Below, piece after piece: positions 20,933 through 26,812 of a stretch of 64,000 bases of DNA. The stretch lies in assembly GCA_900316795.1 (NCBI GenBank), contig ONEF01000001.1, positions 1 through 64,000 on the forward strand, given 5' to 3'. The translations under genes and the position numbers were made by a program. How positions within the stretch are numbered: position 1 is the first letter of the stretch; the number at the start of each line of letters is the position of its first letter. This DNA is from an uncultured Bacteroidales bacterium. Lineage in GTDB: Bacteria > Bacteroidota > Bacteroidia > Bacteroidales > UBA932. Under the pieces are notes generated by a model that was given only the letters and a program-made list of their open reading frames with translations, was not told the origin of the DNA and did not search any database.

Positions 20933-21727
20933 TCAGACGGCAACCGGTGCCTTTATCGCAGGATATGGATCATATCCCACTAATTCAAAATCTTCATAAT
21001 TGAAGGAGAAAATGTCTTTCTGGTCTCCGTGGATGATCATCTTAGGAAGCGGCCTCGGAGTGCGGGAAAGCTGCTCCTTAACCTGCTCAAAATGATTGAG
21101 GTAGATGTGAGTATCCCCAGTGGTGTGCACAAAATCGCCGAGGGAGAAACCGCACACTTTTGCAATCATCATCGTAAGTAGGGCGTAAGATGCAATGTTG
21201 AAAGGAACTCCAAGGAAAGTGTCCGCGCTTCTCTGGTAAAGCTGGCAGGAAAGCTTTCCGTCGGCAACATAGAACTGGAACAGGCTGTGGCAAGGCGGAA
21301 GGGCCATCTTGTCTATCTGGGCCACATTCCAGGAAGAGATAATGATGCGGCGGGAGTCAGGATTGGTCTTGAGCGTGTCCATCACGTTCTGGAGCTGGTC
21401 TATTGTCTGGCCGTTTCCGCAGTCCCATCTTCTCCACTGGGCTCCGTAAACAGGTCCAAGCTCGCCGTTCTCGTCCGCCCACTCATCCCAGATGCTCACA
21501 CCGTGGTCTTTCAGATACTTGATGTTGGTATCTCCGTTGATAAACCACAAAAGCTCGTATATGATTGATTTCAAATGGACTTTCTTTGTGGTAAGAAGCG
21601 GAAACCCGGCACTGAGGTCAAACCTCATCTGATGGCCAAAGATGCTTTTTGTGCCTACTCCGGTGCGGTCTTTCTTTACCACACCATCCTCCATTATCTT
21701 CCTGAGTAAATCCAAATATTGCTTCAT
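20933..21727 (-). CDS. thyA: Thymidylate synthase
   Basis: A 264-residue enzyme of the Escherichia coli type that methylates dUMP to dTMP with methylene-tetrahydrofolate. The catalytic Cys is residue 146 in [12 protein letters not shown]. Other landmarks are [52 protein letters not shown] and [10 protein letters not shown]. The start at MKQYLDLL is chosen; six upstream in-frame residues (MIKFVT) would lie across the promoter box. First gene of a thyA-folA pair. Confidence 0.97.
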
Positions 21728-21732
21728 AGTTA

Positions 21733-21740
21733 CAAATTTA
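21733..21740 (-). promoter_or_regulatory. Promoter -7 box for thyA
   Basis: On the minus strand this reads TAAATTTG, an exact TAnnTTTG, ending 5 nt before the ATG. It also rules out the longer start. Confidence 0.5.
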
Positions 21741-21791
21741 ATCAAAATGAGTCCTAATTGACATTTTGAGAAATAAAATGTACCTTTAAAA

Positions 21792-21824
21792 AAGAGGATG
21801 ACTGAAGTTCCCAGTCACCCTCTT
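21792..21824. terminator. Bidirectional Rho-independent terminator
   Basis: AAGAGG/CCTCTT and TGACTG/CAGTCA arms with one A-C mismatch enclose a 7-base loop. T-runs are present on both strands. It follows the small exported-protein gene on the minus strand and insulates thyA. Confidence 0.85.
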
Positions 21825-21926
21825 TTGTTTTTGAGCTATTATTTCATTAGTGCTAGAAAAAAGACAACAGCACAACGCACAATGTCAATATTTGAATATT
21901 TGCTTTCATTTTAAAAACATTCTTAA

Positions 21927-22475
21927 TCACCGAATTCTCTTCACGGAATCTTTTGGTACCTCTGTTAAATGCCTCTTTACAAAACTTATATCTGATAAGT
22001 AGTCTTCCCTTATATAGAAATAGTTGGCGGAATCATCCCTACCATCCCCTGATGGAGATTTAATAACTAAAAGACTGTCAGATAATTCTTTTATTTCTTC
22101 TGGTTTGTTTAATAGGTTAATACTATGGAGTGTACCTTTTGATAAATCTTCAGGTGATATATAGGCCCCAGAAAGGTTCTTAAAATCTTTCTGATTTAAG
22201 GATTTAACATGTTCGATTACCTCTTCCAAACTATTTTGTACAAATATTGATATCTTTTTAGTGCCATTTTTATCGAAGATCCATGTTATGGAAGCGTAGG
22301 CAGTGTCTTTAGAGTTAGTGATCAATAATGCAGTCCATTTATATTCAGTCAGGTTCTTGAGTAAAAATACTTTAGAGGGGGACTCTGCCGAATCTATAAT
22401 TCTTTTACTATTATTTTGCGCAAATGTAATAATGCAACATTGCAACAGAAAAAGAACAACTATAATTCTTTTCAT
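21927..22475 (-). CDS. Small exported protein of unknown function
   Basis: A 182-residue protein starting MKRIIVVLFLLQCC with a Sec signal peptide that ends near ITFAQ. An alternative ATG at 22508 would overlap the upstream gene and precede the signal peptide, so it is not used. The mature part has FLLKNLTEYKWTALLITN and a C-terminal basic tail; no known family is recognised. It is the last gene of an operon after the Cys-rich lipoprotein gene (13-bp gap) and is followed by a strong terminator. Location is periplasm or outside the cell. Function may be tied to the lipoprotein peptidase, for example as substrate, inhibitor or partner. Confidence 0.65.
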   Translation of the reverse strand: MKRIIVVLFLLQCCIITFAQNNSKRIIDSAESPSKVFLLKNLTEYKWTALLITNSKDTAYASITWIFDKNGTKKISIFVQNSLEEVIEHVKSLNQKDFKNLSGAYISPEDLSKGTLHSINLLNKPEEIKELSDSLLVIKSPSGDGRDDSANYFYIREDYLSDISFVKRHLTEVPKDSVKRIR

Positions 22476-22488
22476 TACGTGATACATG

Positions 22489-24060
22489 CTATTTACCATC
22501 TTTGGCACCAGTTATTGCAATTGATTTGTCTATATCTATATAATAGGTTCCTTCTGTCAAATATCCATAAGTAGGGTCATAAACAATTTGTGTCCCATCT
22601 GCCTCATAACCAACAACTACAAGAGCATGTAATGATTCTCCATCATCGTTGTAAAATAAAATAAAATTATGAGAATCAATGCAGTTTATCATATTACCAT
22701 CATAGGCTGTGGTATAAAACAAATAGTTTACAAAGCCTATAAAATGCTGAGGATTAAAGCCAATGGTAATTGAATTTATGAGCTCTTCTGATGAAGTATG
22801 GCCAATTTGAAATAAATATTCGGTATATCTAGAAGCGATTTTACCATCATTTGAAATTGAATTTCCGCAATTATTTAAGATATATCGAATAGCATTGTAA
22901 AGGCATGTACTGTTTGTGATTTGACTTTGAAACTCAGTAATTAAATTATTAATGACCAATACATCACCGTTCTTTCTAACGTATTTGATGCCACCATCTG
23001 GTTCCCCGTTATTTCCATAATTTCCATTACCAGATCCTCCTCCAGTACCTCCTTCATGATAACAGTTACAGTGTTCCCAAAGAAAACCACATACCGGACA
23101 ACACTCATCTTCGTCTGGGTCTGGGTATGGATCTATGTTAGGGTCAGGATTATTATTTCCGCATATACAATTTGCCTCTAACTTTCCACAAACACTACAG
23201 AAGAAATACAATTCTCCTCCGCCTATTTCTTCAGCTGGGAGCCCACACTTTGAGCAGACCAAACGGTCTGAACCATTGATGGTACCAAGAACCCATGTGG
23301 TTGTCTGATGGCATGTATAGCAATAGGCCATATCATCTTCTCCTGTGCTGTTGCCACCATCACCTCCCTTGGTCATTGGCTTAGAGCCTCTGAATATAAA
23401 CCCGACAGAACCTTTGTTGCTTTTGGAGTTTATATGGTCATGGATATCGTCGTCTTTTGAAATATGCATCTTGAATCTTCGGCCATTAACATAGTAATAT
23501 GCCAGTTGTGCTTCACCTGATTCAGATGAAACAATAAAAAGACCATTGAAATGTCTTCTGCTTCCAGTGTAGAGATATGGCTTCTCTGATGATGTCCTAT
23601 TGCCACTGTCACCTATAGATGTGGTTATAAATCTTTTGACAGTGCCGTCATGTCTCTTTTCTACGACCAAATATGATTTCACTGTCTCATCTTTATGATA
23701 ATAGGTGCGGTATCTTCCAATGCTCAAGTTTAACTTTGCCTTAAGATTACCCGGTAATGTAATTGGAATCATATAAGCAACACCCGCTTCTTTTTGACCG
23801 AATGATGCATTATCCCAGTCTGGAACGATATTTTCCCAATCTGTTTCGCCTTCAGACTTGGTTCTTGCCTTGTTTAAATTCTGAGATTGAAGAAAGCTGA
23901 CAAGTTTCAAATCTGCAGCATTGTTCTCAAAGTTAGCCCTAGCCTGTTCTAAGGTAAAGGAATCCTCTTCATTTCTTTCAAGTAACGAGTTCTCGACTGT
24001 GCAAGAACTCACAAATAGAATGCACAGAATTGCGCATACTTTTAAATAAATCTTTTTCAT
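22489..24060 (-). CDS. Cys-rich lipoprotein with papain-like domain
   Basis: A 523-residue lipoprotein (lipobox VSSC, Cys20). Three parts are visible. Residues 30-230 form an unassigned domain ending in SVGFIFRGSKP. Residues about 245-350 hold paired-Cys modules: CYTC with CSKCG, CSVCGKLEANCICG, and CCPVCGFLWEHCNCYH. These look like zinc ribbons but sit in an exported protein, and are joined by Pro/Asp- and Gly/Asn-rich linkers. Residues 370-523 look like a papain-fold (C39-like) peptidase: nucleophile in NSTCLYNAIRYIL, His in SLHALVVVGYE, Asp in IVYDPTYG. The start overlaps the upstream membrane-protein stop by ATGA, so the two are translationally coupled. Peptidase activity is inferred from the ordered Cys-His-Asp only. 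Confidence 0.6.
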   Translation of the reverse strand: MKKIYLKVCAILCILFVSSCTVENSLLERNEEDSFTLEQARANFENNAADLKLVSFLQSQNLNKARTKSEGETDWENIVPDWDNASFGQKEAGVAYMIPITLPGNLKAKLNLSIGRYRTYYHKDETVKSYLVVEKRHDGTVKRFITTSIGDSGNRTSSEKPYLYTGSRRHFNGLFIVSSESGEAQLAYYYVNGRRFKMHISKDDDIHDHINSKSNKGSVGFIFRGSKPMTKGGDGGNSTGEDDMAYCYTCHQTTTWVLGTINGSDRLVCSKCGLPAEEIGGGELYFFCSVCGKLEANCICGNNNPDPNIDPYPDPDEDECCPVCGFLWEHCNCYHEGGTGGGSGNGNYGNNGEPDGGIKYVRKNGDVLVINNLITEFQSQITNSTCLYNAIRYILNNCGNSISNDGKIASRYTEYLFQIGHTSSEELINSITIGFNPQHFIGFVNYLFYTTAYDGNMINCIDSHNFILFYNDDGESLHALVVVGYEADGTQIVYDPTYGYLTEGTYYIDIDKSIAITGAKDGK

Positions 24061-25814
24061 AAATTCGAATAGTTTAACTTGTTAATAAAATGTTTTGCCT
24101 GGTTCTTAGAACGGACTACCAATGAGCCCGTTATTTTATATCTGTTGTTCAAGATTCTTTCTGCTGTCAGTTTGGCTCCGGATATATCATTGTTTTCTAT
24201 CTGCAGATTGAAAAGCTTGATCAGTGGAGTTATCATTCCAGGGACCATGTAAAAAGCTTCCTTGTATGCAAGGCAAGCATTGGCATAATTGCCTGATTGG
24301 GCATATAAGTCACCGAGGTCGCAAATCATGTCTGATGTGGCTATGGTGTTCTCTGAAATGCGGTTAATAACGGTTATGCTCTCTTGTGGTGCACCGTGAA
24401 GAAAAATTTGTTTAGAGAGGATTAGTGCAAAGCTGATGTCTTCTTCTATAATAGATTTGTATTTGTTGTCGATACAAGAATATGATAGGTCATTTTTCAT
24501 AAAAGCTCTAAGGTTTGATTGAGCTAGTTTAATATCCCTTACACTAAAGAAACTGAGCAAAAGAGAGCCTATTGATAGTGTGGTTATAATAACGGGATTC
24601 CACCAGCCTCTGCGTGTCTTTTCGTCATCGTCAGTTTCCTCAGCCTCTGAAAATCTTGAACCCAATAGAATGGGCAGCATACAAAAAATCGGGCCAATGT
24701 CTGATGTATAGAGGAAACAAGAAACAACGACCAATGAGATTAAAGCCAATTGCAAAATCAAATGTCGTTGGCGTTTGAGCCATATAATCATCGCCGAACA
24801 AATTAGAAACAAACCAACTACGCCCTCTTCATATAAAATATGTAGGGGTTCATTGAATGACTGGTAGTTATTGTCAGCAGTTGCCCAATATTTAGAATCA
24901 GGGTGACTTCTAAAATAGTCTGCTTGAAGGTGCATATAATCCCGGGCAAGTGATAAAGTGCCCTTTCCAAAGAAAGGATTCTTAGTGTATTCTCTTGACG
25001 CTACCTTCCAGATTAAAAGCCTCGAATCAGCAGACTTGGGTCTGATGTAATATAAAAGGAATGAAGAGAGAATAGCCGCTGAAGCTAAAAGAATAAAAAG
25101 AGTCTTTCTGGTTTTTGTTGAATAGGTCTTGTTTGTACAGAAATACAATAGAAAAGAGATAATGACAGCCGCAATGGCTCCCCTGGAGGTAATGAGAAGT
25201 ATGAAAACAACTATAAGTGCGGCAGAGGTGCGGAATAACCATTTGGCCATTTTAGATGTCTGGCTATCTGCTAATACAAGAGGCACTGGAAAAAGAACAG
25301 CGAGGAAAACAGCCAAATGTCCTGGATTTGAAAACTGCGCAGTGGCACTGAATGGATTAAAGAAGACCTCTGAATGCAGAAGCTTCTGTACGAGAAAGAT
25401 AAAACACTGAATTAAAGCCGAGAAAACAAGGCTATATAATATAACATTCAGAATACGATTATTGTTTGATAAACATCGTATTGTCAGATATATACTGAAG
25501 AATGTCGTCCACTTAATTAAAACAGCACCGTTTATTTCTTTGCCATTAAAAATAGTATTGAGAGCGGCAAAAAGAAAATAACAGCAAAGAAGAACATCAA
25601 TAACATCTATCTTAAAAACTGTTTTCCTCGGAAACAAGAATGATTGAATCCATATAAAGAGAATCGTTAGCACAGGAACTGTTAATGACAACGTTGAAAA
25701 GAAGCTATGCGTATTCATACCTGTGCTTTTTGACCAAAGCATAGGCAATAAACAAATTCCAGCACCAATGATTGCTGCTACAGGAATTTGGGATATACTC
25801 GATGGACTCCTCAT
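24057..25814 (-). CDS. O-antigen ligase/Wzy_C-like membrane protein with repeat tail
   Basis: A 585-residue inner-membrane protein with about a dozen hydrophobic segments between residues 10 and 430. Between late helices lies a periplasmic loop (around residues 270-340, with LARDYMHLQADYFRSHPDSK and NEPLHILYEEGVVGLFLI), as in the Wzy_C superfamily of O-antigen ligases, polymerases and PglL-type O-oligosaccharyltransferases. The last 120 residues resemble tetratricopeptide repeats (GDLYAQSGNYANACLAYKEA). The ATG at 25814 is used; an in-frame TTG at 25829 would fall within the promoter box. It leads a three-gene operon with the Cys-rich lipoprotein. The glycan and acceptor are unknown. Confidence 0.75.
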   Translation of the reverse strand: MRSPSSISQIPVAAIIGAGICLLPMLWSKSTGMNTHSFFSTLSLTVPVLTILFIWIQSFLFPRKTVFKIDVIDVLLCCYFLFAALNTIFNGKEINGAVLIKWTTFFSIYLTIRCLSNNNRILNVILYSLVFSALIQCFIFLVQKLLHSEVFFNPFSATAQFSNPGHLAVFLAVLFPVPLVLADSQTSKMAKWLFRTSAALIVVFILLITSRGAIAAVIISFLLYFCTNKTYSTKTRKTLFILLASAAILSSFLLYYIRPKSADSRLLIWKVASREYTKNPFFGKGTLSLARDYMHLQADYFRSHPDSKYWATADNNYQSFNEPLHILYEEGVVGLFLICSAMIIWLKRQRHLILQLALISLVVVSCFLYTSDIGPIFCMLPILLGSRFSEAEETDDDEKTRRGWWNPVIITTLSIGSLLLSFFSVRDIKLAQSNLRAFMKNDLSYSCIDNKYKSIIEEDISFALILSKQIFLHGAPQESITVINRISENTIATSDMICDLGDLYAQSGNYANACLAYKEAFYMVPGMITPLIKLFNLQIENNDISGAKLTAERILNNRYKITGSLVVRSKNQAKHFINKLNYSNL

Positions 25815-25826
25815 AATATAGTCCGG

Positions 25827-25834
25827 CAAATATA
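25827..25834 (-). promoter_or_regulatory. Promoter -7 box for Wzy_C-like operon
   Basis: On the minus strand this reads TATATTTG, an exact TAnnTTTG, 12 nt before the ATG and preceded by very AT-rich DNA (25840-25906). Confidence 0.5.
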
Positions 25835-25906
25835 TTGATAAATTTTTATTTTTAATTAATTAAATGATTTATTTTTTTTATTAATAAAAATTTGAGGTTT
25901 TTATTT

Positions 25907-26812
25907 TTAATATGAAAGTTTCATTAAGATGGGCAGGTGGTCGCTGGCTCCACCGTTGAAGCGTGGCCCGATGAAGGTTCTTTTTGTTTTGTATCCGAGG
26001 TACTTTTTGTCTTGCTGCAGAAGATGATCAAAGGAAAGGATTTGAATATTTCCGTTTATTGTTTTTGATACAAGGAACTGGTCAAGCATCTCCCATCTTC
26101 CTTTGTATCTGTGTGTTCCGGTTATAGAAGCCCTTGCTTTTTTCAGGGAGTCTTTCAGCCTCAGCGACAAGTTCTCAAGAGATGTTATGCTTTGGAGGGA
26201 GGGTGACGAGGGGCTGTCGTTGAAATCTCCCATCGCTATTATCCTGGCATCAGGATTTACTGTCTGGACAGAATCCACTATATGGCGGAGAAGGTTTGCA
26301 GCCTCCATCCTTCTGGGAAGTGATTTCTTCTCTCCTCCAAGTTTTGAAGGCCAGTGGTTTACCAGAAAATGGACGGTGTCTTTCAGTTCCACTGAAAGCA
26401 TCTTTGCATAGAGGATGTCTCTTGTTTTGAAAGATTTGATTTCAAAGAAGGAATACTCCAGAAGTATCATCCGGTCATCTCTGTACAGAAGGGCAACGTC
26501 TATGCCTCTGCTGTCCGGAGAATCCTTGTGCAGAATCCTGTAGCCGAGTCTGGAAAGCGGAGTGTCATAGACCAGGTTCCTGAGGGTCTTAAGGTTCTCC
26601 ACCTCACAGACGCCTATCACTGAAGGATATGCTCCATCTTTGTCTTTTATCGCGATGATGGTTTTTGATATAAGGTCTCGCTTTGCCCTGAACCTTTTCC
26701 AGGTGACAACCTTCTCTCCGGAAGAAAAATCCACGTCTTTCTGCGGATAGAAGAAATTCTCAAGATTCCAGAACATAATGAGCAGTGTGGCTATTCTGAC
26801 TGTTGTTTCCAT
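25907..26812 (-). CDS. Endonuclease/exonuclease/phosphatase family protein
   Basis: A 301-residue hydrolase of the EEP (DNase I-like) superfamily. Metal-site motifs in order: FWNLENFF (residues 14-21, the Asn), CEVENL (Glu), LVNHWPSK, AMGDFNDSPSSPSL (Asp/Asn pair) and the terminal GGASDHLPILMKL with the Asp-His dyad. Bacteroidetes members act on DNA, phosphoinositides or other phosphodiesters; this substrate is not identifiable. The N-terminus includes one short hydrophobic stretch but no clear signal peptide. Single gene between an operon on the same strand and divergent ychF. Confidence 0.85.
   Translation of the reverse strand: METTVRIATLLIMFWNLENFFYPQKDVDFSSGEKVVTWKRFRAKRDLISKTIIAIKDKDGAYPSVIGVCEVENLKTLRNLVYDTPLSRLGYRILHKDSPDSRGIDVALLYRDDRMILLEYSFFEIKSFKTRDILYAKMLSVELKDTVHFLVNHWPSKLGGEKKSLPRRMEAANLLRHIVDSVQTVNPDARIIAMGDFNDSPSSPSLQSITSLENLSLRLKDSLKKARASITGTHRYKGRWEMLDQFLVSKTINGNIQILSFDHLLQQDKKYLGYKTKRTFIGPRFNGGASDHLPILMKLSY

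What the first reader, a model, noticed from the sequence alone, without database searches (positions are those of the whole stretch)
21927..25834. Operon of Wzy_C-like ligase, Cys-rich papain-like lipoprotein and small exported protein
A polytopic Wzy_C/PglL-like protein with a repeat tail is coupled by ATGA overlap to a lipoprotein combining three paired-Cys modules with a papain-like Cys-His-Asp domain, then a small exported protein. Promoter at 25827 and terminator at 21792 mark it as one unit. Zinc-ribbon-like modules on an outer lipoprotein are unusual. A dedicated glycan-to-protein or peptide-processing surface system is possible. I know of no described system with this exact composition.
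Basis: partly seen in the sequence, partly recalled or inferred. Interest (0 to 1): 0.62.

Follow-up and report, generated by a model that had tools for sequence, protein, structure and literature searches.

The report
Lipoprotein effector with matching immunity gene
In a gut-type Bacteroidales bacterium, a three-gene insertion seems to encode a lipid-anchored protease weapon with an interchangeable business end, a matching protective protein, and a glycan-ligase-like membrane partner; if right, it is a little-noticed way in which Bacteroidota attack their neighbours.

Summary
Their best reading is different. Gene 2 belongs to a Bacteroidales lipoprotein family with a conserved N-terminal domain, Cys modules or a Gly linker, and an interchangeable C-terminus: papain/C39-like, HExxH, JAMM, M23, phospholipase-like, or InlB repeats only. 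A small exported gene follows, and its family tracks the C-terminus (0 of 20,000 permutations match). For the JAMM branch, the partner (DUF6705) occurs in arrays of up to four behind one effector. It also survives alone where the effector has been deleted, including in the window's own genome. Gene 3 survives in another species beside a dead 80-codon relic of the gene 2 C-terminus. The papain model's top PDB matches are interbacterial protease toxins. I read the operon as a polymorphic effector-immunity pair on a lipoprotein carrier, inserted between an exonuclease gene and thyA, which are adjacent in about 25 congeners. The Wzy_C-TPR gene lies beside 16 of 23 Cys-module relatives, so the link is genuine, but its job (glycosylating the carrier?) is unproven. 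Toxicity, delivery and zinc binding are untested. It is a new variant of a known kind.

The parts
24057..25814 (-). gene 1: polytopic Wzy_C (O-antigen-ligase-like) protein with TPR-like tail, 585 aa from ATG 25814 (590 aa from TTG 25829)
   Evidence: Pfam Wzy_C 50.7 bits vs cut-off 31.7; homologues beside gene 2-type lipoproteins
22489..24060 (-). gene 2: 523-aa lipoprotein effector candidate
   Evidence: ATGA overlap with gene 1
24001..24060 (-). lipoprotein signal peptide and lipobox cysteine C20 (VSSC)
   Evidence: sequence; conserved in homologues
23341..24000 (-). conserved N-terminal carrier domain (residues 21-240)
   Evidence: profile A2 finds it in 14/39 congeneric genomes and in 9/26 genera of the family
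23062..23322 (-). three four-Cys modules, zinc-ribbon-like (residues 247-333)
   Evidence: most of the Cys invariant or nearly so in alignment A2; one of 11 members hits Pfam Zn_ribbon_3 at 2.8e-6
22990..23061 (-). Gly-rich linker (residues 334-357)
   Evidence: sequence; shared by homologues
22492..22989 (-). papain/C39-like C-terminal domain (residues 358-523), triad C386/H478/D495
   Evidence: sister L149 copy passes Pfam Peptidase_C39_2
21927..22475 (-). gene 3: 182-aa exported protein, candidate immunity protein
   Evidence: type I signal peptide; orphan 84%-identical copy in G003
21903..22728 (-). cassette shared with G003: last 80 codons of gene 2 plus all of gene 3, 88% identical DNA, no homology on either side
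21790..21826 (-). intrinsic terminator hairpin
25827..25834 (-). TAnnTTTG promoter element (tatatttg)
   Evidence: sequence; upstream box not clear
21746..25906 (-). whole insertion between exonuclease gene (25907-26812) and thyA (20933-21745)
   Evidence: the two genes are adjacent or overlapping in about 25 congeneric genomes

Best explanation
The operon encodes a polymorphic effector-immunity pair on a lipoprotein carrier, with a Wzy_C-TPR membrane partner. Gene 2 is exported by Sec, lipidated and carried to the outer membrane (inferred), where the conserved N-domain and Cys modules present an interchangeable C-terminal enzyme, here a papain/C39-like cysteine protease. It acts on neighbouring, probably related, cells by contact or by membrane vesicles (inferred). 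Gene 3 is secreted into the periplasm and binds the protease to protect the producer (inferred). The Wzy_C protein probably modifies or helps display the Cys-module type of carrier (inferred from gene neighbourhood only). Shown here: the conserved carrier with variable C-terminus, partner families that follow the C-terminus, orphan partners and relic cassettes, and the operon as an insertion. Not shown: toxicity, neutralisation, delivery, surface location, zinc binding, ligase activity.
For: Conserved N-domain with at least five C-terminal enzyme classes (M23, C39_2 and InlB by Pfam, the rest by motif). Downstream-gene family tracks C-terminus class: 40 of 45 same-partner pairs share the class, 0 of 20,000 permutations reach that. 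JAMM effectors with intact flanks are always followed by DUF6705, whereas DUF6705 is often alone or in arrays: four behind one effector in L127 and up to four in Flavobacteriales behind JAMM lipoproteins. At the gpmI-dnaE slot the effector is present in G004 and G001 but absent in G028, G003 and the window's own genome, with the partner intact; in G028 and G000 the last codons of the lost effector remain. Gene 3: intact orphan in G003 behind an 80-codon relic of the papain domain that lacks the Cys and has an in-frame stop; dN/dS 0.34-0.39. Top Foldseek hits of the model: papain-like toxin/immunity pair 9l5u and the CdiA-CT toxin 8ssm. The operon sits in an otherwise closed exonuclease-thyA junction.
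Against: Many Cys-module relatives carry only InlB repeats, or no extra domain, with partners (TonB_C-like, DUF4136-like by eye, MG2-like) that do not look like immunity proteins, so the carrier is not used for toxins alone. The four papain-type members each have a different partner, so C-terminus/partner tracking cannot be shown within that class. One papain copy (L149, second) has lost Cys and His. Foldseek E-values are modest (2.5e-3) and the model is weak outside the C-terminus. No killing assay or known delivery route. The window's own N-terminus lacks the C-x-K-(D/E)2 surface-export signal that several relatives have.
Confidence: 0.6

Rival explanations
1. Surface protease with dedicated inhibitor or chaperone: gene 2 is a housekeeping or host/nutrient-directed surface protease (like interpain or the C10 proteases) and gene 3 keeps it inactive during export. 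No interbacterial conflict is involved.
For: Papain fold close to staphopain, SpeB and interpain; known protease-inhibitor operons such as staphopain-staphostatin (PDB 1y4h/1pxv).
Against: An inhibitor or chaperone has no use without its enzyme, yet partners persist alone after effector deletion and in arrays. The same carrier holds unrelated enzyme classes.
Confidence: 0.2
2. Dedicated glycoprotein display system: gene 1 is an O-oligosaccharyltransferase whose cis-encoded substrate is the Cys-rich lipoprotein; the variable C-termini are surface functions such as adhesion or enzymes, displayed on a glycosylated stalk.
For: Wzy_C gene within 4 kb of 16 of 23 Cys-module loci and 0 of 5 without the modules, Fisher p 0.008 (loci not all independent). 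PglL-type ligases often lie beside their substrates (PMC3643930). InlB-only members fit a display role.
Against: No D(S/T)(A/L/V/I/M/T) sites in gene 2 (0 vs 1.5 expected). The His at WaaL H338/PglL H349 seems not conserved in this subfamily (by eye). It does not explain orphan partners. It could be true together with the best explanation.
Confidence: 0.15
3. Effector aimed at eukaryotic hosts: lipoprotein effectors with shared N-domain and many enzymes, like the Amoebophilus APD1/APD2 proteins (PMC3482391).
For: Same architecture: lipobox, shared N-domain, polymorphic C-termini including papain-like peptidases.
Against: Host-directed effectors need no exported partner genes, arrays or orphans.
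Confidence: 0.05

Closest known systems
SitA/SitI lipoprotein polymorphic toxins of myxobacteria (PMC5562445)
   Same: Polymorphic lipoprotein toxins with shared N-terminus, unrelated C-termini, downstream cognate immunity gene, and an overlapping upstream accessory gene
   Different: SitA toxins studied there are nucleases delivered by outer membrane exchange and the accessory SitB is a predicted beta-barrel; here the upstream gene is a Wzy_C ligase-like protein, C-termini are mostly peptidases, partners are exported, and no exchange machinery is known
MAFB-N, Microscilla-N and Amoebophilus APD1/APD2 lineage-specific carrier domains (PMC3482391, section 37)
   Same: Constant lineage-specific N-domain after a signal peptide (lipobox in APD1/2), very variable C-terminal effectors
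   Different: Different lineages; homology of the N-domains was not tested; APD effectors are predicted to be host-directed and are not described with immunity genes
Cpe1/Cpi1 papain-like protease toxin and immunity (PMC12136450) and CdiA-CT 8ssm
   Same: Papain-like fold for the C-terminal domain; toxin next to immunity gene; related to C39 peptidases
   Different: Cpe1 is associated with T6SS or CDI delivery and cuts GyrB/ParE in the cytoplasm; here the partner is exported, so the target is probably periplasmic or at the surface
Tox-JAB-1/Imm65 of Bacteroidetes (PMC3482391)
   Same: JAB/JAMM toxin paired with a lipobox-bearing exported immunity protein in Bacteroidetes, like the JAMM-DUF6705 branch of this family
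   Different: Described on RHS-repeat proteins; whether DUF6705 equals Imm65 was not tested
Bacteroidota CDCL toxins with lipoprotein immunity BcdI (PMC11169675)
   Same: Bacteroidota antagonism with a surface lipoprotein immunity gene in the toxin operon
   Different: Pore-forming toxins, not modular enzyme-bearing lipoproteins
PglL/WaaL O-oligosaccharyltransferases beside their substrates (PMC3643930)
   Same: Wzy_C protein encoded next to a candidate substrate
   Different: Substrates there are mostly pilins; here the ligase has a TPR tail and no activity is known

Membership tests
Polymorphic toxin systems | Conserved N-terminal trafficking region with interchangeable C-terminal toxin domains | tested here: met
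   Alignments and neighbourhoods of about 40 loci
Polymorphic toxin systems | Downstream immunity gene specific to the C-terminal domain | tested here: met
   Permutation test 0/20,000; met for the JAMM and part of the HExxH branches, not resolvable inside the papain branch
Polymorphic toxin systems | Standalone cassettes and orphan immunity genes | tested here: met
   DUF6705 arrays and orphans with effector remnants; gene 3 orphan with relic in G003
Polymorphic toxin systems | C-terminal domain has a fold known from toxins | tested here: met
   9l5u and 8ssm are the best Foldseek hits, VIA Z 9.7 and 8.6
Polymorphic toxin systems | Toxicity neutralised by the cognate partner | not testable with these tools
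   needs expression and competition assays
SitA lipoprotein toxins | Type II signal peptide on a polymorphic toxin with downstream immunity gene | tested here: met
   lipobox C20 and homologues
SitA lipoprotein toxins | SitB accessory gene with type I signal and predicted beta-barrel | tested here: not met
   the upstream overlapping gene is Wzy_C
SitA lipoprotein toxins | Transfer by TraA-dependent outer membrane exchange | not tested
   no search for TraA/TraB was made
Papain-like C39 peptidases | Papain fold with Cys-His-Asp triad | tested here: met
   C386/H478/D495; staphopain Z 11.7, PCAT1 Z 10.5
Papain-like C39 peptidases | Match to Pfam Peptidase_C39_2 above cut-off | tested here: inconclusive
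   sister copy in L149 passes (29.5 vs 24 bits); the window protein itself gives no hit
Wzy_C O-antigen ligase / PglL | Wzy_C domain above Pfam cut-off | tested here: met
   50.7 vs 31.7 bits
Wzy_C O-antigen ligase / PglL | Conserved residues equivalent to WaaL R215, R288, H338 | tested here: inconclusive
   R216 and R270 conserved in 25-26 of 26; the His before the invariant N326 is present in 1 of 26, mapped by eye
Wzy_C O-antigen ligase / PglL | Glycan transfer to the neighbouring protein | not testable with these tools
   gene 2 lacks the Bacteroidetes D(S/T)(A/L/V/I/M/T) site
Zinc ribbon | Metal-binding CxxC...CxxC knuckles | tested here: inconclusive
   Cys largely invariant, one member hits Zn_ribbon_3; the region is unfolded in the model

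The most novel reading that the evidence does not exclude
A Bacteroidota-wide class of interbacterial weapons in which lipoproteins carry interchangeable enzymes on a constant N-domain, protected by exported immunity proteins kept in arrays, with a branch that uses a dedicated Wzy_C glycan ligase to modify its Cys-module carrier for display or delivery.
Probability: 0.3. Interest if true: 0.82.

Novelty: new variant of a known kind. Interest (0 to 1): 0.64.

Why it matters
Lipoprotein-carried polymorphic toxins are known mainly from myxobacteria. A Bacteroidales family with interchangeable enzymes, exported immunity arrays and a glycan-ligase neighbour would be a second, independent case in a dominant gut phylum, and raises a testable question of delivery (contact, membrane vesicles, or modification by the ligase). 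It also gives a function hypothesis for DUF6705 (immunity to JAMM lipoprotein effectors) and for other exported partners of unknown function such as DUF5043.

Tried and rejected
A second structure prediction, of gene 3 alone, failed (mean pLDDT 40), so its fold is unknown; its weak DUF6705 hit (E 0.0045, below cut-off) is only a lead. Profile A2 had no stretch conserved enough for the search for related loci; a two-sequence alignment found only two loci. Phage and plasmid collections gave no match, so no mobile-element carrier is shown. I looked for a target-site duplication at the window insertion: none is obvious. The idea that gene 3 is a universal third component was rejected: it is in only 2 genomes, apart from a third, weak match in a broken frame. 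The reading that all family members are toxins was rejected because InlB-only members exist. No paper mentions NVEALA or DUF6705 in the held library.
Full report
OBSERVATION. The operon is as described. Gene 1 (24057-25814 from ATG; TTG 25829 possible) is a Wzy_C protein with a weak TPR tail. Gene 2 (22489-24060) overlaps it by ATGA and is a 523-residue lipoprotein: lipobox at C20, a beta-rich N-domain, three four-Cys modules, a Gly linker, and a papain-like end with C386/H478/D495. Gene 3 (21927-22475) is a 182-residue exported protein. A strong terminator follows.

FOLD OF THE C-TERMINUS. The AlphaFold2 model of gene 2, built on four sequences, is poor overall (pLDDT 51), but residues 385-520 reach about 75. 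Foldseek's best PDB hits are a papain-like toxin/immunity pair (9l5u, E 2.5e-3) and a CdiA-CT toxin (8ssm, 8.6e-3); VIA gives staphopain Z 11.7, PCAT1 C39 10.5, 9l5u 9.7, all on residues 358-523. A sister copy passes Pfam Peptidase_C39_2. The papain-like reading stands. 9l5u is probably the Cpe1/Cpi1 complex of PMC12136450; the entry code is not in that text, so this is an inference.

THE FAMILY. Searching 149 genomes found homologues of gene 2 only in the same genus, with the same N-domain but other C-termini. A profile of N-domain plus Cys modules (A2) hits 14 of 39 genomes of the genus, 29 of 250 of the family (9 of 26 genera) and 6 of 247 of the order (the last two include the genus or own genome). 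Reading about 40 loci shows a constant carrier with variable ends: papain/C39, HExxH or EExxH metallopeptidase, JAMM (HxHP...S..D), M23 (Pfam 1.8e-12), a helical zinc phospholipase/S1-P1-like end (by eye), InlB repeats alone, or nothing. Zhang and colleagues list papain, JAB, Het-C/phospholipase and other peptidase domains among polymorphic toxin ends (PMC3482391).

PARTNERS. Nearly every lipoprotein is followed by a small exported gene whose family follows the C-terminus: six of six JAMM with DUF6705, four HExxH with another family, InlB ends with TonB_C-like, DUF4136-like (named by eye) or MG2-like proteins. Permuting partners never reached the observed agreement (0 of 20,000; 40 of 45 pairs in the set found by the N-domain alone). 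The C-terminus and partner classes were partly assigned by hand from motifs and BLAST groups, and loci of one genus are not fully independent.

IMMUNITY SIGNATURE. DUF6705 occurs in 18 of 149 relatives. Effectors with JAMM ends always have it; it is often without an effector. One JAMM lipoprotein in L127 is followed by four copies. Between gpmI and dnaE, G004 and G001 carry effector plus DUF6705; G028, G003 and the window's own genome (C20:75964) carry DUF6705 only, and in G028 and G000 the last codons of the lost effector still precede it. In G011 the effector was cut from within its signal peptide into that of DUF6705, leaving a usable signal. In Flavobacteriales, DUF6705 arrays of up to four lie behind JAMM-type lipoproteins in most of 17 loci read. 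Losing the enzyme while keeping the partner is what immunity predicts and what an inhibitor or chaperone does not. For the window's own pair there is one case: G003 has an 829-bp block, 88% identical, that starts abruptly inside the papain domain (no catalytic Cys, a stop just before the His) and ends just after gene 3, with gene 3 intact and under purifying selection (dN/dS 0.34-0.39).

INSERTION. The exonuclease and thyA genes that flank the operon touch, overlap or lie close in about 25 congeners, so the 4.2-kb operon is an addition in this species. Some effector cassettes elsewhere begin with a 60-70-bp copy of the 5' end of the neighbouring housekeeping gene (L193, L198, L200), a hint at how they enter. 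The window's insertion shows no such copy.

GENE 1. Wzy_C homologues lie within 4 kb of 16 of 23 lipoprotein genes with at least three CxxC, and of 0 of 5 without (Fisher p 0.008). Several counted loci share ancestry or a contig, so the true weight is lower. In more distant Bacteroidales the same ligase family lies beside other exported proteins. PglL-type ligases often sit next to their substrates (PMC3643930). Against glycosylation: gene 2 has no Bacteroidetes O-glycosylation site (the site motif itself is from my own knowledge) and the family seems to lack the His of WaaL/PglL (by eye; residues).

LOCATION. Many relatives begin C-Q-K-D-(D/E), which fits the C-x-K-(D/E)2 surface-export signal of Bacteroidetes (PMC5080379). 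The window copy (C-T-V-E-N) does not. Surface exposure of this copy is therefore an inference.

MECHANISM. Best reading, 0.6: a lipoprotein-borne polymorphic effector (papain protease) and exported immunity protein, with the Wzy_C protein as an accessory of the Cys-module branch. It works like SitA/SitI (PMC5562445) but is not a SitA: the upstream accessory is not a SitB-type barrel. The family as a whole is not only toxins, because InlB-only members exist.

NOVELTY. The text search found no paper on this family, on DUF6705 or on this gene set, within a library that lacks most subscription journals. The principle is known, the carrier and the ligase link appear new: a new variant of a known kind.

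Noticed in passing
window 21825-21909, minus strand: Relic of another exported gene (MKANIQILTLCVVLLSFF, then frameshifted SSTNEIIAQKQK) between gene 3 and the terminator; perhaps a decayed second partner gene.
   Followed up: partly
own genome G000:C20:75964-76527 (L190), outside the window: Orphan DUF6705 gene between gpmI and dnaE, preceded by the last codons of a deleted effector.
   Followed up: yes
L193 3851-3920 and 6404-6473; L198 and L200 5' ends: Effector cassettes carry a 60-70-bp copy of the 5' end of the adjacent housekeeping gene, so the effector ORF begins with dnaE's first codons; possibly a trace of how cassettes insert.
   Followed up: partly
L149 (JAFZLJ010000090.1): Contig titled Treponema carries two tandem papain-type Bacteroidales cassettes; probably a misbinned contig. 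The second papain domain has lost Cys and His and is followed by an exported DnaJ-TonB_C protein.
   Followed up: partly
L015, L026, L117, L119, L120, L123: Large (about 850 aa) exported protein with an alpha-2-macroglobulin MG2-like start next to these lipoproteins.
   Followed up: no
G000:C9:105695-106696 (L113) and G000:C3:70665 (L114): The own genome has a second intact Cys-module lipoprotein (InlB end) and a truncated third beside a partial Wzy_C gene at a contig end.
   Followed up: partly
L139-L146: In other Bacteroidales the same Wzy_C-TPR family lies beside short exported NVEALA-like peptides and about 640-aa lipoproteins; the link of this ligase family to small exported proteins may be general.
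   Followed up: no
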